IMG/VR virus record: IMGVR_UViG_3300031886_000041 | Coordinates: 1 to 24,321 of that record | Length of the DNA: 24,321 nucleotides | Source: a virus | Strand: one strand, 5' to 3' | In this document: positions 6,689 through 20,300 of the stretch, one piece after another | Layout of the letters: the number at the start of each line of letters is the position of its first letter | Position numbering within the stretch: the first letter of the stretch is position 1 | The notes under the pieces: generated by a model | Told to the model about the DNA's origin: nothing | Seen by the model: the letters and a program-made list of their open reading frames with translations, nothing else | The model's database searches: none | Position numbers and translations under genes: made by a program

Positions 6689-8308
6689 TTAGACGTTATC
6701 TGTATGTGCGACGTTGATCAGGCCGTAAAATTCATTACGAACCATTTTCTTAGCGTAGCGAGTCATCACGCCTCTACGAGGAGTGAAGTTAGTTGGATCA
6801 TAAACAACTGGTGTTAAGATCAACGGAACATACGGAGCATATACAGCACCTGTTTCTAGGAACTGTGCGCCTCTGAATCCAGCCAAGATTTGATCATCTT
6901 GTAAATAAGGATTCTTGAACACGTTGAAACGGTTGTTTAACATACCAACTTTTTGAACGCCCATAGCGTATGATTTGGTCACATCACCATCTGAATCTGT
7001 AGCAAATCCAGGAATTGACTCAAGAACAGTAGCAACTTCAGGTGATACCACGATGAAGTTTGCGCCACCACGTAGAGTTTTCTTGTGGATTGCGTTAGAA
7101 ACGGATTGTATTTTGTTACCAAGTGTTTGATACCAATCGCCTTTTGTGTAGGCATTTGATGCACCTGATAATTCAGTGTATTCACCACCGGAATATTCAT
7201 ATCCAACGCGTGCGGACCAGTTTTCGGTCTTAGCAGATGCGTTAGATTTTAACATATCGATGATTTCCAAATCGATCTCCATGGTTACATACTCAGAAAG
7301 CATTGCAGTCAATTCTGCTTCAGCATCGACAGCATGATAAGCGTTAAGATCTTGAGCAAGCTCAGGAGTCCATACAGCTTTCAACTTACGAGTCTTAGCA
7401 GTGATTGCGATTGAACGCATCTGGATGTCAACTTCAGGAATACCAGCATTAGATTCTTCAGGATTAGATCCTTCTGAAGCAAATGTAGTTTCGAAGTCAC
7501 CACGTGAGGTGTCAGATGGAGCTACGTGATACGCAATATTAACGACGTCTGCCAATGGAGTATCTTTACCAATCGAACCTGATACGATCATTGATACGGT
7601 AGTACCACTAATTGTAGTGAACGCTGGGTAATGAGCTCTAATCTTTGCAGCCGCTGAACCGGACATTATAGCCCATGCTTTCGCACCGTCTATATCGCCA
7701 TCAGTTGGTGCAGTAAAGGAAATCTTAGTAAGAGATCCTGCTGCAGCCGAAGCTGAAAGGTTTGCATCGAAATGTACGTCAGCTACAGAAGCGGTTGCAG
7801 AGTTTGCATCCGAAACTGCTACTGAAGCAACTGAGTCGTTTATTGAGTAACCCCATTTACCGGCACCGTAAAGACCGCCGGAAGGGTCGCCAGAGCTAGA
7901 AGTATCGCCATACAAGTCACTTGCTTTGGCATGATTATTTTCACCCTGTTGTGTTGAACCATATTTGAAGTCTAAGTAAAAAATTAGACCAGATGGTAGG
8001 TTCATAGGTTGTACAGAAACAAATTCCTGTGCAGATAGTTCAGCAAAGATCCTACGAACTAATGGAAGGGCAACGCCACTCCATTGTTCTTGGTTTGCTG
8101 AAGTTCCCACTTGAGAAGCTTCATCAATTAACTGCTTCGCTTGGTTTTCCAAGAGAACAGCCATTCCAGGAGCTTCTTTTTCGTCTTTAAGTCCTTCGAG
8201 TAGGCCTGTTGGCTCCCACTTGTTGACCAATTTACGTGAGGAATCTAAAAGCACATTATGCGGATTGTACCCACCCATTACATCTTTGATTTCTTTGTTA
8301 AAAGACAT
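6689..8308 (-). CDS. 23: Major capsid protein, T4 gp23 type
   Basis: A 539-residue protein (T4 gp23 is 521) that forms the hexamers of the head. Family matches: LPLVRRIFAEL and SVQPMNLPSGLIFYLDF (81-114; T4 GVQPMNSPTGQVF), LKAVWTPELAQDLNAYHAVDAE (309-330; T4 LKAQYSIELAQDL), RGGANFIVVSPEVATVLE, and a C-terminal YAPYVPLILTP...TRYAKK stretch. Residues about 155-290 are Ser/Ala/Gly-rich and probably form the surface insertion domain. A processing site is plausible after Glu63 (IDE|A), matching the (I/L)xE rule of T4 protease gp21 and close to the T4 cut after Glu65. The gene follows the scaffold by 13 bases, has GGAG before its ATG, and is closed by a strong terminator. Codons here are visibly more GC-rich than in most neighbours, as expected for a highly expressed gene. 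Confidence 0.95.
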   Translation of the reverse strand: MSFNKEIKDVMGGYNPHNVLLDSSRKLVNKWEPTGLLEGLKDEKEAPGMAVLLENQAKQLIDEASQVGTSANQEQWSGVALPLVRRIFAELSAQEFVSVQPMNLPSGLIFYLDFKYGSTQQGENNHAKASDLYGDTSSSGDPSGGLYGAGKWGYSINDSVASVAVSDANSATASVADVHFDANLSASAAAGSLTKISFTAPTDGDIDGAKAWAIMSGSAAAKIRAHYPAFTTISGTTVSMIVSGSIGKDTPLADVVNIAYHVAPSDTSRGDFETTFASEGSNPEESNAGIPEVDIQMRSIAITAKTRKLKAVWTPELAQDLNAYHAVDAEAELTAMLSEYVTMEIDLEIIDMLKSNASAKTENWSARVGYEYSGGEYTELSGASNAYTKGDWYQTLGNKIQSVSNAIHKKTLRGGANFIVVSPEVATVLESIPGFATDSDGDVTKSYAMGVQKVGMLNNRFNVFKNPYLQDDQILAGFRGAQFLETGAVYAPYVPLILTPVVYDPTNFTPRRGVMTRYAKKMVRNEFYGLINVAHTDNV

Positions 8309-9535: not shown

Positions 9536-9733
9536 CTAAAGTGCGGCTTTTTTTGATTTAATCCTGGCGCGCACCAGACCACGAGCTTTTCGCTCTCTTT
9601 TTATAGCTGAGGGTTTTTCATAAAACTGACGCTGCTGTACTTCATGTAGTATACCAGCATCTTTTACTTTTTTCTTAAATTTTTTGAGAGCTAATTCAAA
9701 CTTATTATTTATAACCTTAACGTATATTGCCAT
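9536..9733 (-). CDS. rpsU: Phage-encoded ribosomal protein bS21
   Basis: A 65-residue basic protein with the bS21 pattern: MAIYVKVINNKFELALKKFK at the start, AGILHEVQQRQFYEKPSAIK in the centre (E. coli bS21 has [20 protein letters not shown]), and a Lys/Arg-rich C-terminus. bS21 sits on the small ribosomal subunit near the anti-Shine-Dalgarno region and influences initiation; it is one of the ribosomal proteins known to be carried by marine phages. The gene follows the 168-residue gene with no gap, its ribosome site (AGAGGA) lying inside that gene's end, so it is likely co-translated with head genes. The phage protein may swap into host ribosomes and favour phage messages, but that is inference. 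Identification is strong. Confidence 0.93.
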   Translation of the reverse strand: MAIYVKVINNKFELALKKFKKKVKDAGILHEVQQRQFYEKPSAIKRERKARGLVRARIKSKKAAL

Positions 9734-10241: not shown

Positions 10242-10847
10242 TTATTTTCCTGTTAAAATGTTTTGTATGTCGTATTCGACCATTGCCCATTTGCTAGAAC
10301 TAGAAGAAATTTTCCTATTTGATTTTCCTTCTGATATTGGACTGAGAAATGCGCCGTGTGTAGACGGATTAGATACGAAGTCAAACGCAATTAATTCAAA
10401 ATCCCCTTGAACTTCATCACCCTTTGATTCTTGTTTAATAGATCCCAAACCTCTTGAGCTAATACCTAATTTTATACCGCTTTTAAATAGTTCCTTTAAT
10501 ATATTACCAGCAGGAGTACTCAATACTTCAACAGTACCAACTAAGTCATTTCCGCCCCAATGCATTTCTAATATATTGTGAGATACATTTTGAAGATTGA
10601 CAACTGAACTATCCGGATGATCTAATTCACCCATAGCTCTACGCTGTTTGATAAATTCACTGGTATATTTTTTTGCTTCTCTAACTAAAATATCCTTTGG
10701 ATAAACTCTACCATTTTGATTCTGAGACTCAGCTCTTTGTAAAACTCCCTTTACAATTAATCTACCATTATTGCTTGAAATGGATTCATTTATTTGTTCT
10801 GGAGTTACTTCAAATGGGATTATATCTACTAATAATGCTTTATTCAT
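10242..10847 (-). CDS. 21: Prohead maturation protease, gp21-like
   Basis: A 201-residue serine protease of the T4 gp21 type, which digests the scaffold core and trims the capsid protein during head maturation. Visible elements are GVLQRAESQNQNGRVYPKD (34-52), the catalytic histidine region GELDHPDSS (His77), and the serine region LGISSRGLGS (Ser130/Ser131). FDFVSNPSTHGAF (155-167) follows, as in related proteases. T4 gp21 is 212 residues, so length fits. The C-terminal Ser-rich stretch (ISSSSSKW) may be an autoprocessed tail. Its ATG overlaps the upstream stop by one base (TAATG). Neighbouring scaffold and capsid genes are its expected substrates. Confidence 0.9.
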   Translation of the reverse strand: MNKALLVDIIPFEVTPEQINESISSNNGRLIVKGVLQRAESQNQNGRVYPKDILVREAKKYTSEFIKQRRAMGELDHPDSSVVNLQNVSHNILEMHWGGNDLVGTVEVLSTPAGNILKELFKSGIKLGISSRGLGSIKQESKGDEVQGDFELIAFDFVSNPSTHGAFLSPISEGKSNRKISSSSSKWAMVEYDIQNILTGK

Positions 10848-12124: not shown

Positions 12125-13918
12125 TTAAAGCTTTTCTTTTGAACCGTTTAATTCAGATTCAATATCTTCGACTTCGTTAATCATTTGTTTTTCTTTTTCA
12201 CCATAATGCTTTTTCAATGCATTGTAATGCGAAAGAGCCAACGGACTTTTCCTATATGTGTGTTTCGTAGATCTATCTGCATCTAGTGCATGCGTATAAT
12301 CATATTTTCCTAAAGCATCTCGGACACCTAATGTTTCTCTATCTTCTGTTTCTCTATCCGTTTTTTCATCATCTTCATCTTCATCATCTTCGTGATCAGG
12401 TTTATGAGAATCCTGTTTCAATTGTCCTTCCTGTGCAGGTTGGGCCGGATCTGATCCTTCATTTTCTATACTATTTAGTCTATATGCATCTTTTTTATCA
12501 TCAACAACTTGTTTGCCAATAGTTTCCACATCTTCATCAGTAAAATTAAAAACGTTATCATATATCCACTGTTTAGATACTAAAGCTTCAGCTTTCATAT
12601 CTCTTGCAATTGAATTTTTCTTTTCCCAAAGATCTAACCTTTCTTGTTCGTATATGGTAGAAGGATTAGTAAGTTCTAAATCAAAATCTACTAATGCAGC
12701 GTCTGTATATCCTTGAGAATACAAATGAGCAACCGCTATTTTAGTAAGTTCACTTACAACAATTCTTTGAATTCTTTCAATTGTTCTTGCAAATCTAACA
12801 TCTTCTGCAGCTAATGTAGCCTTAGATCCAACTTGTTCTTCATACCCTAAGAATGCTTTTGGAATTTTAAGAGAAGCCAATAATTTATTTCTCAAATATT
12901 CAATATCTTCTACTGCTTCGTACGTTAATCCTGGAAGAGATTCTATACCGGTGCCACTATCACCACCACGAACTGGTAAATAAAAATCTTCAGTAAGGTT
13001 TTGCATATTATATTTTAAATTGTATTCACCTGTATTCTCATCAACAACTGGCGCTTTTTTCATCTTATCGATGATTCTTTTCATATAATTATCAACTTCA
13101 CCTGGAGGTAAATTACCAATATCAACCTTAAACACTCTCTTTTCCGGTGCTCTCATAATTCTATGAATCAACATAGCATCTTCCATAAGTTGTAATTGTT
13201 TCCAAACTCGTCTGCCACCCTCAATCATACTTTTTCCGTATGGAATGTAATTGGAGTCCGATAGTAACCTAAAGTGTGCCATTTCAAAATTCTCTATTTC
13301 GTTTCTACTCGGATTACCGGCTACGTTTCTAGGATCTGTAGCGTCCAATACAAATTTTACATCATTAGGACTTTCAGGATCCCATCCCTCAATTCTTGAT
13401 ACGTCGTATGGAGAAAGTGGCATTACATTAATAACACCATATCCTTCTGCTACTTCCATGTGCAAGAAGAAATCACCGTACTTAACCATATTTCTAACCC
13501 ATGGCCATAGATTAAATTCTATGTTTAAAATATCGTAAAATAAATTGTGTAATATTTCTGCAATTTGAGTATTATTTGATTTTATTTCCAATACGTTTCC
13601 GTATTCAGATTTCATTGTCGACTCATCTGCATATACATCCATTGCTGAAGATATAATTGCATCATCATCCATCGCTTCATAATCCCGAAACAGTGCAACT
13701 CTCTGAGCTTTAGCCAATTCTCCAGAATAACCCATATATCCACCATAACCAGATTGAGTAGTGTATAGTTTAGTATACCGATCCATTAGGGTTTTTGATC
13801 CTGCCTGAATATTATCAGTATCAACAATTTTTAACTTTCTACCTCCAACGTTTCTTACTATAACGTTAGATGAAAATAGTCTTCTTATTCGATCGTAAAA
13901 TGTATCATTTTTTGCCAT
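12125..13918 (-). CDS. 20: Portal vertex protein, gp20-like
   Basis: A 597-residue protein forming the dodecameric DNA gate of the head. Recognisable portal stretches are MVKYGDFFLHMEV (144-156), MAHFRLLSDSNYIPYGKSMI (213-232), LIHRIMRAPEKRVFKVDIGN (250-269), DIEYLRNKLLASLKIPKAFLG (338-358) and VRFARTIERIQ (374-384). These match T4 gp20 in order; T4 gp20 is 524 residues. The extra length is a C-terminal acidic, Asp/Glu-rich and disordered tail (about 485-597). It starts two bases after the terminase stop without a good ribosome site, so translation is probably coupled to the terminase gene. It is the docking site for the terminase during DNA packaging. Confidence 0.95.
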   Translation of the reverse strand: MAKNDTFYDRIRRLFSSNVIVRNVGGRKLKIVDTDNIQAGSKTLMDRYTKLYTTQSGYGGYMGYSGELAKAQRVALFRDYEAMDDDAIISSAMDVYADESTMKSEYGNVLEIKSNNTQIAEILHNLFYDILNIEFNLWPWVRNMVKYGDFFLHMEVAEGYGVINVMPLSPYDVSRIEGWDPESPNDVKFVLDATDPRNVAGNPSRNEIENFEMAHFRLLSDSNYIPYGKSMIEGGRRVWKQLQLMEDAMLIHRIMRAPEKRVFKVDIGNLPPGEVDNYMKRIIDKMKKAPVVDENTGEYNLKYNMQNLTEDFYLPVRGGDSGTGIESLPGLTYEAVEDIEYLRNKLLASLKIPKAFLGYEEQVGSKATLAAEDVRFARTIERIQRIVVSELTKIAVAHLYSQGYTDAALVDFDLELTNPSTIYEQERLDLWEKKNSIARDMKAEALVSKQWIYDNVFNFTDEDVETIGKQVVDDKKDAYRLNSIENEGSDPAQPAQEGQLKQDSHKPDHEDDEDEDDEKTDRETEDRETLGVRDALGKYDYTHALDADRSTKHTYRKSPLALSHYNALKKHYGEKEKQMINEVEDIESELNGSKEKL

Positions 13919-13919
13919 A

Positions 13920-15488
13920 TTATATTAACCAAGTTAGTGATTCTTTGTGGTCTCCTACAGGTTGTTTCCAACCGTAATCGTTTTCATCTTCAACAGTATA
14001 AATTCCAGAGCTAGAATCCATTTTGTCCATGGCGTCTCTAGTAACTCTCAAATTTTCTTCATGAAGTCTTAATGCCGTTTCTCTGATCCATAGTCCAATT
14101 GCCATGCTCATGACCAGATCGTCATTGTATCCTTTTAAAGCTTCTGCCTTACCATTATTAAATATAAATACAAATAATTCATCTACAAGTCTAATAGAAT
14201 TAATTTTAACTGATCTATCTCTAAGAAACTTAGATAAGTTTTCTATCATTAATGGTCTACTCTTCATAGAAGTTGTAAAACCTGGAACCATCATTCTATT
14301 TTCACCACGGTATTTGTTTGTATATTGTGTCTTTGAATCGACATACTTTAAATCTTTTTTCATCCAAAATAAATTTTTGTATTCTCTATCAATTAATGTT
14401 TGTAATACTGCCCATCCAACATTGTTATTCTCAACAACTAATAGTGCATCATTATATTCTGTTGCTACTGACATTAAAATAGTAGAATATCTTGTTGTAT
14501 CTTCTTTAGATCTGTATTCTGCAACCTGTTCCATAGTTTCCAAATCCAATACATGAAAAGCAGAATAATCAACTCCATCTCCGCGAGCAACGTCAGCTGA
14601 TATTAAATATTTTTTGCTAGCTTCTGGATTTTTCCATACCCAAAAATCATCACTATATCTTTTTTCCATAGGTTCACAAACTGTTTTATCCTGAATTTCC
14701 TTTATTAATGTACCTGGAATTACAGATTGTCCAGAACTTATAAAATCACAATCACACTCTTGAGCTGCCATATCTGGACCTAACAATTTATCTTGATCAT
14801 TTCGCCACTCTTGTCCACGATTTGGATGAACTGTCCAGTGTAACTTAATAAAATTGAAATTATTAATTCCTTCTTCTGCATCTGTCCATGTTTTATGAAA
14901 CCAGTTTCCCATACCATTTGGAGTAGACAGTGCAATACACTTACCGCCAGTTGCCAGCGTCTGTTGTGATGCGGTCCATATTTCATCTATATTTTTAATA
15001 AATGCTGCCTCATCAATTATCAAAAGTGACAGTGCTTCAGATCTACTAGCTTCTCCTGTTGAAGAAACTGCCTTTATTTGGGAACCATTATTATATCTTA
15101 ATGATAATTTATTATCTTCAATACATCCTTGTTTCAACCATGTTGGTAATTCTTTATGCATAACCCTAACTTTAGTAACAAGATTTTTTGCTACATCTTG
15201 TTTGGTAGCAATTACAAGTATGTTTTTATCGGCATGAAAATTCATTAACCATAAAGAATATCCTGCGGATAAGGTAGAAAGACCCAATTGTCTAGCCTTT
15301 AATATCACATTATAATCGTTGTTTTTAAAGTCACCAAGAGTTCGTTCTTGAAATGAATATAAATCAAACTTTATTTTTCCCTTTACTGGATGCTGAATTG
15401 TGCAGTATTCCTTCATAAAGTATGCCGGATCTAAAGCGCACTTAATATATTCTTCTTTAATCTTTTGTTTTATTTGTTTATTAGACAT
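13920..15488 (-). CDS. 17: Large terminase subunit, gp17-like
   Basis: A 522-residue packaging motor and headful nuclease. The ATPase domain shows Walker A KARQLGLST (64-72), Walker B LLIIDE with catalytic Glu (155-160) and the coupling motif LSTPNG (187-192). The RNase H-like nuclease domain shows SADVARG (Asp299), VVENNNVG (Glu353) and YNDDLVMSMAIG (Asp456/457), the expected acidic triad. T4 gp17 is 610 residues, so this form is compact, mostly because the N-terminus is short. Its ATG overlaps the upstream zinc-ribbon gene by 8 bases (ATGTCTAA). The portal gene, its docking partner, follows directly. All catalytic residues I looked for are present. Confidence 0.96.
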   Translation of the reverse strand: MSNKQIKQKIKEEYIKCALDPAYFMKEYCTIQHPVKGKIKFDLYSFQERTLGDFKNNDYNVILKARQLGLSTLSAGYSLWLMNFHADKNILVIATKQDVAKNLVTKVRVMHKELPTWLKQGCIEDNKLSLRYNNGSQIKAVSSTGEASRSEALSLLIIDEAAFIKNIDEIWTASQQTLATGGKCIALSTPNGMGNWFHKTWTDAEEGINNFNFIKLHWTVHPNRGQEWRNDQDKLLGPDMAAQECDCDFISSGQSVIPGTLIKEIQDKTVCEPMEKRYSDDFWVWKNPEASKKYLISADVARGDGVDYSAFHVLDLETMEQVAEYRSKEDTTRYSTILMSVATEYNDALLVVENNNVGWAVLQTLIDREYKNLFWMKKDLKYVDSKTQYTNKYRGENRMMVPGFTTSMKSRPLMIENLSKFLRDRSVKINSIRLVDELFVFIFNNGKAEALKGYNDDLVMSMAIGLWIRETALRLHEENLRVTRDAMDKMDSSSGIYTVEDENDYGWKQPVGDHKESLTWLI

Positions 15489-16023: not shown

Positions 16024-18579
16024 CTATCTCGCAAACTTCATTAGTCCAGTAATCTGATTTATTGGAGCAAAAAAGCCGGTAAATTTATATGTCTTTCCCT
16101 TAAACTTGAAAACTAAACCCTCTGAAGGAACAAGTTTATCTAAATCACCCATGGCCGCTATCTTATTAAGCTGGGTTTTTAATTTAGACAAAGATGAAGG
16201 ATTTTTAGTTTTTCTTATAGCTTTTGCCGCTTTATCTAAATCTTTACGTAAATTTTGAACAGTTTGATCTGGATTTGGTGCTATCCAATTACTAACATTA
16301 GACAATATTTCTGCACCCAATTCAAAGAATAATGCTTCAAAGGGTTTCATATTAGCCTTTAACATTTTTTCATGATCTAACTTTTCAGTTGTTTTAACCC
16401 AATCAACAAACTCAGGGTGTTCTTCCTTTAACTTGTTAATTTCAGTCATCTTATATGATTTGTCTCTAAATGCCCATCTTTTCATAAGTGAATATAATAT
16501 ATCATCTGTTATATTTGCAAAATCTGTAGAATTGGCGCCTGCTAAGATATATTCAAGCCAAAACATTTGGTGATAAATTGAAACCTCATCTGTATCCTTC
16601 AATTTATATATATTCTTGAGATTGTTCAAAGCGCTAAAAAACTTTGATCTAAGCTTAGCATAATCCTTGGACTTCGTTACGTTTAAAACATTTGGACCAC
16701 CAAACGAGAATTTAGATTCAATATTCTTATTTATTTTGTTTATTGCTGCGGCAATCTTTGTACCACCATCTTTTACTTCACCCTTTGGAACCCAGTTTTC
16801 ATCATATTTTAAAATTCCGTGAAATATTAATTGTGCACCAGCATCATAATCTATAACGTTCTTAGTAGACGGGTAAATTATTTCTAGATTTGCCCAGTTT
16901 TTACCATTATCAAAGAACGATAATTGATCTTTCTTGTTTAGTTTTTCCAATACTGCTTTTAAATCTTGCATAGAATAAACAAATGCATCTCTAACATTTG
17001 GTATGTGATGTTTGAATTTGTTTTCTACGTCTTTAAGGGACATTCCTCCACTTTTTAAATTTCCCTTATTTCTAGCGGCTCGTGCTTTACCGTTTATAAC
17101 CGATATCATAATATTTTGACCGTCTAGTTTTTCAGTTGCTGATACTTCTTTGCTTAACTCTCCCTGTAACCCTTGATCTATTATGGATTTTAAATCTCCA
17201 AAAGTTAGACCGTAATCATCAAACGGGTGTGCCATGTGACCATAAGCTCCTCCCATAAGTAATAACTCCTTTTTTCTTATAACCTGTTCTTTAAATGCTG
17301 AAGTAAATAAATCAAATATTTTTTGATCAAAATACCCAAACATTTTCTTAAAAAATTTCTTTTTAATGTCTACATCATATTTTTCTGAACCCAATAATTT
17401 TCTCATTGTAGTTCCACTTATTTCTTGACCTCCTACTCGTACTGAAATATGCGGGGCTTTTAATGTATATCCATGCTTTTTAAATCCAGCTAAACGCATA
17501 TAATTTTTTTTGTATGGTTTAAAATAAGAACCGCCCGTTAAACGTCCTTCATCCTTTTCTCCAAGTGCAAACACAATAGCCGTTGTATCTTCATCATACT
17601 TCTTCATTATCCCCTTTGGAATGTACGGTTGTTTTTCCATTTTAATTGCTGATCCGTTAATTCCCATTTTCTGCATGTGTTTTTTCTTTTCACCAAAACT
17701 CATAGGATGTCTACTACCGCCCGTCTTATTGCTAGTTGCTATAAAAACGTCATCAAACCTCTTCTTTAAATGATCATATACTTCTTTGTGATGAGGACCA
17801 AATGGTTGAAACCTTCCTGGATAAACTGCAATTATTTTTTTAATACCTGGTGCCTCAATAGAGCTTGCTTCTTTGACTTCGCTCTTACTTTTAGAAAATT
17901 CAATTGCTTTTAACTGAGCCATTGCTTTTTTCTTGGACGAATGTGTACCTAAACGGGTTCCGCCCTTCTTTGGATAAACAACATATTCTCCATCAACTTT
18001 CTTTATAGTTTCTTTCAATGATACTATAATGCACTCATTTAATTTACCGTGCATAGAACCAAGACCAGCGCCTTCTGGTACTTCACCGGTTGGAATTATT
18101 ACAACTTTACTCTTACGTTCCTTACCTATGCCCATCCACTTAATAATCTCCCATCCTAATTCCTTAATTATCTTTTCCATTTCTTTCATATACTTTTTAT
18201 CGCCGCCATCAAGAGTAGAGTCGCCCGTCTGTATTGTACCACCGTAAGAAACAGTATCTGCTCTACCTTTCATTCCGGAACCATCATCTATCATCATTCC
18301 TAATTGATAGTATGGATCTTCTGCCTTATCTGATAAAATATAATCTACAACTGGCCAGCCCATTACTTTAGCTGCCTTTGATTTTGAAATTTTCTTATAA
18401 TCAGAAAAACCTGAAAAGTAATCGTATAGTCCTTCATCTGAATAGACGCCTTGTACTTGACTACTCTCCTTTAGAATTTTAGTCTCGTACAAAAATTGTT
18501 CAATAGTATCATCATCTAATACTACAGAGTTTTCTCCGTACATTACATCGTAAGCTAATCGTTTTGAAAATTTAGACAT
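16024..18579 (-). CDS. Fusion of NMNAT/cytidylyltransferase-like and KxDG ligase-like domains
   Basis: An 851-residue multidomain protein. Residues 1-240 are of unknown type, ending in a GTRLGTHSSKKKAMAQL stretch (207-223) seen near phage head proteins. Residues about 245-400 form an HxGH-superfamily nucleotidyltransferase: YPGRFQPFGPHHKEV (253-267, where the usual first His is Gly261 and His264 remains) and EISGTTMRKLL (386-396), as in NMN adenylyltransferases. Residues about 440-851 resemble covalent nucleotidyltransferases (RNA/DNA ligases): motif I EKLDGQN (Lys484), a NLEIIYPS stretch (564-571) like motif III, motif IV SEGLVFKF (819-826) and motif V KTYKFTG (829-835). Reaction and substrate are unknown; NAD-related chemistry, RNA repair or end-joining are options. 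It lies between the muramidase and packaging genes; start ATG with AGGA upstream. Confidence 0.8.
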   Translation of the reverse strand: MSKFSKRLAYDVMYGENSVVLDDDTIEQFLYETKILKESSQVQGVYSDEGLYDYFSGFSDYKKISKSKAAKVMGWPVVDYILSDKAEDPYYQLGMMIDDGSGMKGRADTVSYGGTIQTGDSTLDGGDKKYMKEMEKIIKELGWEIIKWMGIGKERKSKVVIIPTGEVPEGAGLGSMHGKLNECIIVSLKETIKKVDGEYVVYPKKGGTRLGTHSSKKKAMAQLKAIEFSKSKSEVKEASSIEAPGIKKIIAVYPGRFQPFGPHHKEVYDHLKKRFDDVFIATSNKTGGSRHPMSFGEKKKHMQKMGINGSAIKMEKQPYIPKGIMKKYDEDTTAIVFALGEKDEGRLTGGSYFKPYKKNYMRLAGFKKHGYTLKAPHISVRVGGQEISGTTMRKLLGSEKYDVDIKKKFFKKMFGYFDQKIFDLFTSAFKEQVIRKKELLLMGGAYGHMAHPFDDYGLTFGDLKSIIDQGLQGELSKEVSATEKLDGQNIMISVINGKARAARNKGNLKSGGMSLKDVENKFKHHIPNVRDAFVYSMQDLKAVLEKLNKKDQLSFFDNGKNWANLEIIYPSTKNVIDYDAGAQLIFHGILKYDENWVPKGEVKDGGTKIAAAINKINKNIESKFSFGGPNVLNVTKSKDYAKLRSKFFSALNNLKNIYKLKDTDEVSIYHQMFWLEYILAGANSTDFANITDDILYSLMKRWAFRDKSYKMTEINKLKEEHPEFVDWVKTTEKLDHEKMLKANMKPFEALFFELGAEILSNVSNWIAPNPDQTVQNLRKDLDKAAKAIRKTKNPSSLSKLKTQLNKIAAMGDLDKLVPSEGLVFKFKGKTYKFTGFFAPINQITGLMKFAR

Positions 18580-19137: not shown

Positions 19138-19146
19138 TATAAATAT
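19138..19146 (-). promoter_or_regulatory. AT-rich box variant before the muramidase gene
   Basis: The coding strand reads ATATTTATA, a variant of the TATTTATTA boxes, overlapping the last base of the upstream gene. It ends only about 17 bases before the muramidase ATG, closer than the other copies, so the transcript leader would be very short. This is the weakest member of the set. Confidence 0.25.
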
Positions 19147-20300
19147 TACTTTTTATTGTGAACAGCTACACCATTAACAAAATAAATATCATCATCTTCT
19201 ACGTCCAAATCCCATGTTGGTATACCTTTATTATCAGATCCCATATCCCATTCTTCTTCAAGAGCCACAATCGTCGCATCTACTGTAGAACTTCCTGAAA
19301 CCATAACCATTATATCTCCGATTGCCAATTGATGAACAGTTTTAACCATATCATATATTTGATTTGTATAATCAGGATTATATGATGCAACTGTTCCATC
19401 TTTACGAATAAAAGGATGATCTATTGTATGTTCTAATACTTCAATATTTGCCCAACCATTTAAATCGTAACCTCTAACTGAAGTTTTCATCATAGCAGCG
19501 CGCATTGGATTTGATCCGCTCATTACTGTAGCCGTACTTAACGTTCCTGAACCGGAACTAAATGAAAGTACAGATTCTCCAATAGAAACGTCTTCAATAT
19601 TTTTCTCAGTATAATCTGACATCATAATTTTAGAACCAGATTTAAAGCAACTTCCACCAGCAATATCCCAATTAACAGTCCACACAAAAGTAGCATCATC
19701 TCTAGCTGGTGTATCGATGTCCATATCAACTTCAATTGAATCATTACCTACCCCGGATATATTATCTTTCCGCATTCTCCAATACGGATTTGAACCAGTT
19801 GCTCCTAGAACATCATCGTCACCGGATGCCGCAAGTGTATTCCAATTATCTGGAGAACTATCCGTATTTTCCATCGCAAGTTGCATATTATCAAATGAAC
19901 CAGCATCTCCATAAATGTAAGTAACACCAGTTAACGTCGCACCATCTGGAGCCGTATACAAAATCCTATAAACATTTGAATATCCTGGACTAGTTGTTAC
20001 ATTTGAAGTTGCTGATTGCCCAGCATCTACGTTACCAATTGTTACCCAACTTCCAGTTGGATTAGTATTAGTCACACCAGCTTTGTCATGATCATACGCA
20101 TAAAATTCAGTCATTGCATGCGGAGCATCACCGTCCGGTCTATCACCTGAAGCGTTAGCTGTATTAATGGTTCCTTCCGAACCATCAGATAAATTCTTCA
20201 ATGTTACATTTGAATTTACTGTAGTACCAGCATAATTGTTATCGTCCAACTCATTATACAATTTGTTTAACGATAATTCTCCTGAGGCAGGAACTGCCAT
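19146..20300 (-). CDS. Virion structural protein with C-terminal Hint autoprocessing domain
   Basis: A 384-residue protein. The N-terminus MAVPASGELSLNKLYNELDD, with HAMTEFYAYD at 61-70, follows a pattern common in marine phage tail and collar proteins (GELSL...MSEFYGY). A beta-rich region of unknown type runs to about residue 215. From Cys218 the sequence is a Hint (intein-like) domain: CFKSGSKIMM and IEDVSIGESVLSF (block A), EHTIDHPFIRKDG (289-301; block B Thr292/His295) and, at the very end, YFVNGVAVHNKK (373-384; His381-Asn382). Only Lys-Lys follows the His-Asn, so there is almost no C-extein and splicing would join almost nothing; N-terminal cleavage or ester formation at Cys218 is more likely. 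Start supported by GGAG. Confidence 0.85.
   Translation of the reverse strand: MAVPASGELSLNKLYNELDDNNYAGTTVNSNVTLKNLSDGSEGTINTANASGDRPDGDAPHAMTEFYAYDHDKAGVTNTNPTGSWVTIGNVDAGQSATSNVTTSPGYSNVYRILYTAPDGATLTGVTYIYGDAGSFDNMQLAMENTDSSPDNWNTLAASGDDDVLGATGSNPYWRMRKDNISGVGNDSIEVDMDIDTPARDDATFVWTVNWDIAGGSCFKSGSKIMMSDYTEKNIEDVSIGESVLSFSSGSGTLSTATVMSGSNPMRAAMMKTSVRGYDLNGWANIEVLEHTIDHPFIRKDGTVASYNPDYTNQIYDMVKTVHQLAIGDIMVMVSGSSTVDATIVALEEEWDMGSDNKGIPTWDLDVEDDDIYFVNGVAVHNKK

What the first reader, a model, noticed from the sequence alone, without database searches (positions are those of the whole stretch)
16024..18579. Nucleotidyltransferase fused to a KxDG ligase-like domain beside the packaging genes
One 851-residue protein holds an adenylyltransferase-type site (GRFQPFGPHH, ISGTTMR) and a covalent-nucleotidyltransferase site (EKLDG, EGLVFK, KTYKFTG), plus an unassigned 240-residue N-terminal part. 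NMN adenylyltransferases make NAD from NMN, and NAD-dependent ligases return NMN, so a fusion could recycle its own cofactor. Equally, it could repair or tag RNA or DNA ends. KVP40 NatV is a known phage fusion of an NMN adenylyltransferase with a Nudix domain, but I know of no described pairing with a ligase. The usual first His of HxGH is replaced by Gly261, which may mean altered chemistry or a family-wide variant.
Basis: partly seen in the sequence, partly recalled or inferred. Interest (0 to 1): 0.75.

Follow-up and report, generated by a model that had tools for sequence, protein, structure and literature searches.

The report
Phage polyprotein joining NAD-maker and ligase
A widespread marine virus protein joins an NAD-making-type enzyme to an RNA-ligase-type enzyme and carries built-in cut sites that suggest it is packed into the virus head, cut into separate enzymes and injected, probably to mend RNA that the bacterium breaks in self-defence.

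Summary
Window 16024-18579 (minus strand) encodes 851 residues with a NadM-like HIGH adenylyltransferase domain (about 245-430) and a KxDG covalent-nucleotidyltransferase domain (436-851). A confident AlphaFold2 model of the latter (pLDDT 91) matches only ligases at the top, led by T4 RNA ligase 1. Catalytic motifs are conserved in 177 of 177 distinct ligase domains. The ligase has an unusual ~200-residue helical insert between motifs IIIa and IV and no C-terminal domain.

The pairing is family-wide (>=558 marine viral hits) and lies next to the terminase gene (183 of 191 loci). The GPHH variant is also family-wide (88/129). The same two folds are adjacent or fused in reverse order in many cyanophages, where the ligase half is the unassigned DUF6267.

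New here: modules are shuffled and bounded by the T4 prohead-protease motif [LI]xE. The window encodes that protease. In about 20 loci the ligase is split into two genes, and a fresh LxE/IxE/MxE site sits at the split (11/11, versus 0/165 unsplit). Best reading: a head-packaged polyprotein of RNA-repair and NAD enzymes, cut during head maturation and injected. NAD recycling inside the fusion is not excluded but unsupported. Packaging, cleavage and every activity are predicted, not assayed.

The parts
16024..18579 (-). 851-aa fusion protein: N-domain, NadM-like adenylyltransferase, KxDG ligase
   Evidence: ORF; 50 relatives in the first viral scan, >=558 hits with the ligase profile
18466..18579 (-). 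residues 1-38: predicted propeptide ending in ILKE|SSQ (T4-type prohead protease motif L/I-x-E)
   Evidence: Glu38 invariant in 22 divergent N-domains, nearly always with L/I at -2; looser motif in 118 of 123 N-domains vs 6.9% of control stretches; consensus from PMC9026906
18010..18465 (-). residues 39-190: N-domain of unknown function, a module that also occurs between NMNAT and ligase; second motif LNE|CII at 180-185
   Evidence: Domain order shuffled among relatives; no Pfam or PDB match
17869..18009 (-). residues 191-237: basic linker (GGTRLGTHSSKKKAMAQL) ending in EVKE|ASS before the NMNAT domain
   Evidence: alignment
17290..17847 (-). residues 245-430: NadM-like HIGH-superfamily adenylyltransferase
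   Evidence: TIGR01527 arch_NMN_Atrans best NCBIfam hit (below cut-off); profile vs PDB 2qjt/2r5w and MJ0541 E to 3.4e-5; Foldseek top hit 2r5w prob 1.00, E 0.015
17788..17817 (-). GRFQPFGPHH, HxGH variant (first His to Gly, second His kept)
17401..17421 (-). ISGTTMR nucleotide-binding motif
16027..17274 (-). residues 436-851: RNA-ligase-fold covalent nucleotidyltransferase
   Evidence: AlphaFold2 pLDDT 91.1, pTM 0.88; Foldseek PDB top hits all RNA ligases
17119..17133 (-). motif I EKLDG, nucleophile Lys484
   Evidence: invariant 177/177; aligns with T4 Rnl1 KEDG, Lys99
16870..16890 (-). motif III NLEIIYP, Glu566
   Evidence: invariant Glu; aligns with T4 Rnl1 NFEFVAP
16153..16767 (-). residues 605-809: all-helical insertion between motifs IIIa and IV
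   Evidence: secondary structure of model; same layout in DUF6267 by motif spacing
16105..16122 (-). motif IV EGLVFK, Glu820
   Evidence: invariant EGxxF
16075..16095 (-). motif V KTYKFTG, invariant Lys832
   Evidence: invariant KxTG
10242..10847 (-). prohead protease (Peptidase_S77, T4 gp21 family), the predicted processing enzyme
   Evidence: PF03420 E=1.8e-28; own motifs INE|SIS near N-terminus and ISE|GKS near C-terminus
6689..8308 (-). major head protein with LIDE|ASQ at residue 63, aligned to T4 gp23 cleavage after Glu65
   Evidence: phrog_138 E=3.8e-76
13920..15488 (-). terminase large subunit (packaging context)
   Evidence: phrog_2 E=1.4e-48

Best explanation
The gene encodes a late polyprotein of a T4-like marine phage. 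It is packed into the prohead, cut by the prohead protease after [L/I]-x-E motifs into separate enzymes, and injected with the DNA. The C-terminal enzyme is a Rnl1-like RNA ligase: it would take AMP from ATP onto Lys484, pass it to a 5'-phosphate RNA end and seal it, most likely to repair tRNA or other RNA cut by host defence RNases. The middle enzyme is a NadM-like adenylyltransferase that would make NAD+ from NMN and ATP and so offset NAD loss or feed NAD-using repair steps. The fused or adjacent presence of the same two folds in other phages suggests that the two activities serve one process. Shown by computation: two domains, motifs, module shuffling, position of motif sites. Inferred: packaging, cleavage, substrates, biological role.
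For: Ligase fold: AF2 pLDDT 91; PDB matches led by T4 Rnl1 (E 1.7e-3, prob 0.96), archaeal RNA ligases and T4 Rnl2. NMNAT: (2r5w, prob 1.00). Active-site conservation. Fusion conserved: every ORF with an intact 5' end and a full ligase domain has the NMNAT in the same ORF except L053, where a weak NMNAT match lies in the next gene, and the TGA-containing loci L038/L039. RNA-repair company in the same ORFs: CCA/poly(A) polymerase head domain E=6.8e-30 and phrog tRNA nucleotidyltransferase 3e-62, HD domain 2.6e-8, P-loop kinase (Zeta_toxin 3.7e-11, phrog polynucleotide kinase 7e-6). Processing: gp21-family protease in the window; head-protein sites in the window at T4-like places; E immediately before modules whatever lies upstream (P-loop kinase 24/24, HD 6/6, AFAVRG module 15/15, PRKKGQHR module 15/15); split ligases with a new [LIM]xE site at the split, 11/11 (8/11 strict [LI]xE) vs 0/165 unsplit; N-terminal [LI]xE in 85/107 family ORFs vs 289/865 others. 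T4 cleavage rule L/I-X-E and capsid targeting from PMC9026906.
Against: No proteomic or biochemical data. Sequence-only comparison with RNA ligases is weak: hhalign A6 vs T4 Rnl1 family E=0.12, no better than the terminase control E=0.11; only the register of motifs agrees, and the PDB Foldseek E-values are modest (none below 1e-3). The short motif is common by chance (33% of other ORFs have one near the N-terminus; 41% of TerL). In the window the ligase is preceded by KKELLLM|GG, not the LxE|GG seen in many relatives. Kinase, HD and CCA modules are absent from the window protein itself. Related sequences are not independent. The cyanophage pair lies outside the head gene cluster, so head packaging is not general for the pairing.
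Confidence: 0.55

Rival explanations
1. Self-recycling NAD-dependent ligase: the ligase takes AMP from NAD+, releases NMN, and the attached NMNAT turns NMN plus ATP back into NAD+.
For: Pairing of the two folds recurs as fusion in either order and as adjacent genes. An invariant His-rich segment (GHMxHPFDD) lies about 35 residues before the nucleophile, roughly where LigA keeps its NMN-binding Ia domain (from knowledge), and a similar HLEHxED lies in DUF6267.
Against: Closest folds are ATP-using RNA ligases, LigA is not in the listed matches. The LigA Ia signature (Y..D.P...D.EYD) is not seen by eye. If the polyprotein is cut, the two enzymes separate.
Confidence: 0.1
2. Ordinary late fusion enzyme made and used in the infected cell, not packaged or cut; the [LI]xE matches are chance or remnants of domain borders.
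For: The motif is short and frequent; no proteomics; the cyanophage pair lies with replication and nucleotide genes.
Against: New sites at the split point of the ligase, sites before modules with unrelated upstream sequence, 118/123 at the N-domain, constant head-gene location.
Confidence: 0.25
3. The ligase-fold domain modifies something other than RNA ends (for example caps or adenylylates RNA, protein or DNA nicks), with the HIGH domain supplying a nucleotide adduct.
For: No C-terminal specificity domain and a novel helical insertion; HIGH domain below the NMNAT cut-off in the window; DUF6267 has no known function.
Against: RNA ligases dominate the fold matches and RNA-repair modules are fused in relatives.
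Confidence: 0.2

Closest known systems
T4 RNA ligase 1 (RnlA, tRNA repair with PseT)
   Same: Best solved-structure match (9do4); motif I KxDG and motif III NxE...P..N..V..Y align in register; phage tRNA repair as likely role
   Different: Here about 254 residues between motif III and IV (68 in Rnl1) because of a helical insert; no C-terminal domain after motif V; fused to an NMNAT-like domain; predicted head protein
DUF6267 (PF19782) plus 'cytitidyltransferase' of cyanophages (S-PM2, P-SSM4)
   Same: Same two folds, KWDG/EGxV/KxV motifs, helical insert between motifs by spacing, shared H-x-x-H-x-x-D segment; structural match to S-PM2 protein E=3.8e-5, prob 1.00
   Different: Reverse order or separate genes; located beside mazG/gp41, not head genes; HxGH intact; no significant sequence match to the window protein
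Bifunctional NMN adenylyltransferase/Nudix (NadM; KVP40 NatV)
   Same: NMNAT fold and motifs; Nudix modules occur in related loci L038, L049
   Different: Partner here is a ligase; NadV not found in two large relatives, whereas PMC9503650 reports NadV in every NadM phage
T4 internal proteins and Alt; polyvalent proteins (PMC5512222)
   Same: Late head-cluster location, predicted protease-removed propeptide, many enzymatic modules in one chain
   Different: Cut sites predicted between modules rather than only at the ends; RNA ligase plus NMNAT core; no embedded peptidase; a split ligase in some members

Membership tests
KxDG covalent nucleotidyltransferase (ligase) superfamily | Motif I KxDG plus motifs III, IV, V | tested here: met
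   Motifs I, IV, V invariant in 177 distinct sequences; motif III Glu invariant in alignment A6
KxDG covalent nucleotidyltransferase (ligase) superfamily | ATP-grasp-like ligase fold | tested here: met
   Model pLDDT 91; the top PDB matches (ranks 1-26) are all ligases, best E 1.7e-3
Pfam RNA_ligase PF09414 | Score above the curated cut-off | tested here: not met
   18.9-20.9 bits vs 27
Rnl1 family (T4 RnlA) | C-terminal helical domain after motif V; Rnl1-like sequence | tested here: not met
   Motif V ends about 20 residues before the C-terminus; hhalign not significant
NAD-dependent DNA ligase LigA | Ia NMN-binding domain, OB, zinc finger, HhH, BRCT | tested here: not met
   No room or match for the later domains; LigA absent from the listed fold matches; Ia motif checked by eye only
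NadM-like NMN adenylyltransferase | HIGH-superfamily fold with GRFQPF..(H)xxH and SGTxxR | tested here: met
   Profile and fold matches, SGTxxR or DGTxxR in most members; first His replaced in 91/129
NadM-like NMN adenylyltransferase | Above TIGR01527 equivalog cut-off | tested here: not met
   18.9 bits vs 181.2
NadM-like NMN adenylyltransferase | NMN is the substrate | not testable with these tools
   Needs an assay
T4-type head-internal protein cut by gp21 protease | Prohead protease of the S77 family in the same genome | tested here: met
   PF03420 E=1.8e-28
T4-type head-internal protein cut by gp21 protease | L/I-x-E site near the N-terminus | tested here: met
   ILKE at residue 38, invariant Glu
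T4-type head-internal protein cut by gp21 protease | Found cleaved inside virions | not testable with these tools
   Needs virion proteomics
Polyvalent proteins (Iyer 2017) | Multidomain effector, shuffled modules, virion-associated locus | tested here: inconclusive
   Multidomain and shuffled, head cluster; virion presence unknown
DUF6267 (PF19782) | Pfam match | tested here: not met
   No hit in the window protein; relation by fold and motif order only

The most novel reading that the evidence does not exclude
A head-packaged polyprotein that carries a complete RNA-repair and NAD-supply kit, in which the ligase uses NAD+ and the linked adenylyltransferase regenerates it; in some phages the ligase is delivered as two fragments that the prohead protease frees to assemble into one enzyme. 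It would be the first NAD-dependent RNA ligase with built-in cofactor recycling, and DUF6267 of cyanophages would be the same system.
Probability: 0.08. Interest if true: 0.9.

Novelty: new variant of a known kind. Interest (0 to 1): 0.7.

Why it matters
It proposes a function for an abundant unassigned pair in marine phages: DUF6267 next to or fused with 'cytitidyltransferase' in about 200 phage records, mostly cyanophages, becomes an RNA-ligase-type enzyme paired with a HIGH adenylyltransferase. It suggests that T4-like phages deliver RNA-repair and NAD enzymes with the DNA, before any viral gene is expressed, using the head protease to release them. The split ligases give a natural test: a protease site appears exactly where a new N-terminus is needed.

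Tried and rejected
First AlphaFold2 job on the full length was poor (pLDDT 60.6); only the NMNAT region was usable, and the N-domain stays unresolved. PDB profile searches with the ligase alignments gave only chance hits (RSV F protein; eS6). hhalign against T4 Rnl1, Rnl2 and DUF6267 was not significant by score; only motif register was used. ADP-ribosyltransferase-like insert in L028/29/31/34 and Ntn-hydrolase-like module in L091/L174/L200 are look-alikes by eye, no Pfam support, so not used as evidence. Split intein for the split ligases was rejected: the N-half simply ends with MISW(R/K)ED or RA/RT/KV and no intein segment follows. Trans-splicing intron not tested. Assembly error as the cause of the splits is unlikely because two arrangements recur in many metagenomes. 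PADLOC search gave nothing. No tRNA in the window. Literature searches for the pairing, Mel-JY01, DUF6267 and cytitidyltransferase found nothing.

Full report
OBSERVATION. The window is a 24,321-base virus record. All genes named in this report lie on the minus strand: major head protein, S21, S77 prohead protease, portal, terminase, the target gene, a GH108 lysozyme and tail fibre genes. The target ORF is 16024-18579, 851 aa. Single-sequence scores are weak, so I tested the claim on relatives and on structure.

FAMILY. tblastn finds three relatives among 50,697 phage records: Microcystis phage Mel-JY01, where the gene is annotated as cytidylyltransferase-like, and two huge phages. Seven hits in bacterial and archaeal assemblies are all in MAG contigs, which I take to be phage contigs. 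Domain orders vary: NMNAT-N-domain-ligase is the commonest, then N-domain-NMNAT-ligase (the window type), then NMNAT-ligase. Each ORF with an intact 5' end and a full ligase domain carries the NMNAT in the same ORF, apart from L053 (a weak NMNAT match in the next gene) and loci with in-frame TGA.

LIGASE DOMAIN. With a 65-sequence alignment AlphaFold2 gives pLDDT 91.1 and pTM 0.88. Foldseek against the PDB lists T4 RNA ligase 1 first (E 1.7e-3, prob 0.96), then archaeal RNA ligases, an Aquifex ligase and T4 Rnl2. The viral structure library adds named RNA ligases and the S-PM2 cytidyltransferase protein. E-values against the PDB are modest. Motifs I, Ia, IV and V are conserved in 177 of 177 sequences, and the motif III glutamate is invariant in the alignment. 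The layout is unusual: about 200 residues of helix lie between motifs IIIa and IV, and motif V is almost at the C-terminus. Profile comparison with the T4 Rnl1 family aligns motifs I and III in register but is not significant, no better than a terminase control. The claim therefore rests on fold and motifs, not on sequence significance.

ADENYLYLTRANSFERASE DOMAIN. The profile matches NadM-type enzymes (2qjt/2r5w, MJ0541), and Foldseek ranks the Francisella NMNAT/ADP-ribose pyrophosphatase first. The first His of HxGH is replaced in 91 of 129 distinct domains, while the second is invariant. NMN as substrate is inferred.

POLYPROTEIN LAYOUT. In related ORFs further modules are fused: P-loop kinase, HD phosphohydrolase, tRNA nucleotidyltransferase head domain, Nudix and others. 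The T4 prohead protease cuts after L/I-X-E (PMC9026906; head assembly review PMC9958956). Sites of this type sit before modules regardless of what lies upstream; at the N-domain in 118 of 123 cases, versus 6.9% of control stretches, using a looser pattern; and near the N-terminus in 85 of 107 family ORFs versus 289 of 865 others. Linkers hold 89 strict motifs versus 41.8 expected from shuffling. The strongest case is the split ligases: in two sets of loci the first ~58 ligase residues, including the KxDG lysine, are encoded in a separate downstream gene, and the remaining part begins right after ELLSE, ELMSE or GITE/LITE. All 11 distinct junctions have [LIM]xE (8 of 11 fit strict [LI]xE), versus 0 of 165 unsplit ligases. 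The window encodes the S77 protease, and its head protein has LIDE|AS where T4 gp23 is cut. The window protein has ILKE at 38, LNE at 182 and VKE at 237; its ligase is preceded by KKELLLM, which does not fit, so its release there is uncertain.

CONTEXT AND FUNCTION. The gene lies upstream of the terminase in 183 of 191 loci. RNA-end enzymes in the same chains favour RNA repair; published work describes phage RNA ligases as counter-measures to tRNA-cutting defence and describes head-packaged NAD enzymes (PMC7824862, PMC9503650). NadV, reported to accompany NadM in phages (PMC9503650), is absent from Mel-JY01 and from LR756508 and present in LR756500, so classic NAD salvage is not the whole story.

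CYANOPHAGES. The S-PM2 protein found by structure is DUF6267 (E 1.6e-111) followed by a HIGH domain, that is, the same two folds in reverse order. tblastn finds both parts together in 201 phage records, often as a hypothetical protein next to a 'cytitidyltransferase'. DUF6267 has conserved KWDGAP, a D in the motif-III position, EGxV and KxVxR, plus an HLEHxED segment resembling GHMxHPFDD. This supports a functional link between the two enzymes but lies outside the head cluster, so head packaging is a feature of the window's lineage only.

VERDICT. Observation confirmed; interpretation partly supported. The thing is a new variant: a predicted head-packaged polyprotein with an RNA-ligase-type enzyme of new layout and a NadM-like enzyme. 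I give about 0.85 that the C-terminal domain is an active covalent nucleotidyltransferase, 0.6 that NMN is the substrate of the middle domain, 0.7 that the protein is packaged and cut, and 0.5 for RNA repair as the role. These are judgements.

Noticed in passing
L038 2402-2404 and 2825-2827; L039 6958-6960; L040: In-frame TGA inside the ligase gene, at a conserved Tyr/Trp place, suggests that these phages read TGA as Trp.
   Followed up: partly
L153-L160, L163, L164; L170, L171, L176, L185, L193, L197, L198, L200-L202: Ligase gene split into two genes in permuted order, the KxDG part downstream of the rest, in two different arrangements.
   Followed up: yes
L361:13486-15261: S-PM2 DUF6267-cytidyltransferase ORF (591 aa) is whole in LN828717 but annotated as two separate ORFs (p138, p139) in AJ630128.
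   Followed up: partly
window 9536-9733: Phage-encoded ribosomal protein S21 (PF01165, 9.8e-13) inside the head gene cluster.
   Followed up: no
window 19146-20300: Protein with a Hint/intein-like segment (CFKSGSKIMMSDYTEKNIEDVSIGESVLSF ... VHN), seen by eye; no PHROG match.
   Followed up: no
L028, L029, L031, L034 insert between NMNAT and ligase: Looks like an ADP-ribosyltransferase (RG, STS-like, ExE) by eye, without Pfam support.
   Followed up: partly
L174:4441-5340, also L091 and L200: Ntn-hydrolase-like module whose preceding IDE/VDE/IEE site would free an N-terminal Cys; no Pfam or PDB support.
   Followed up: partly
record of L204 (G008), about 13852-14421: A 2463-residue open frame of the same family, the longest seen.
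   Followed up: no
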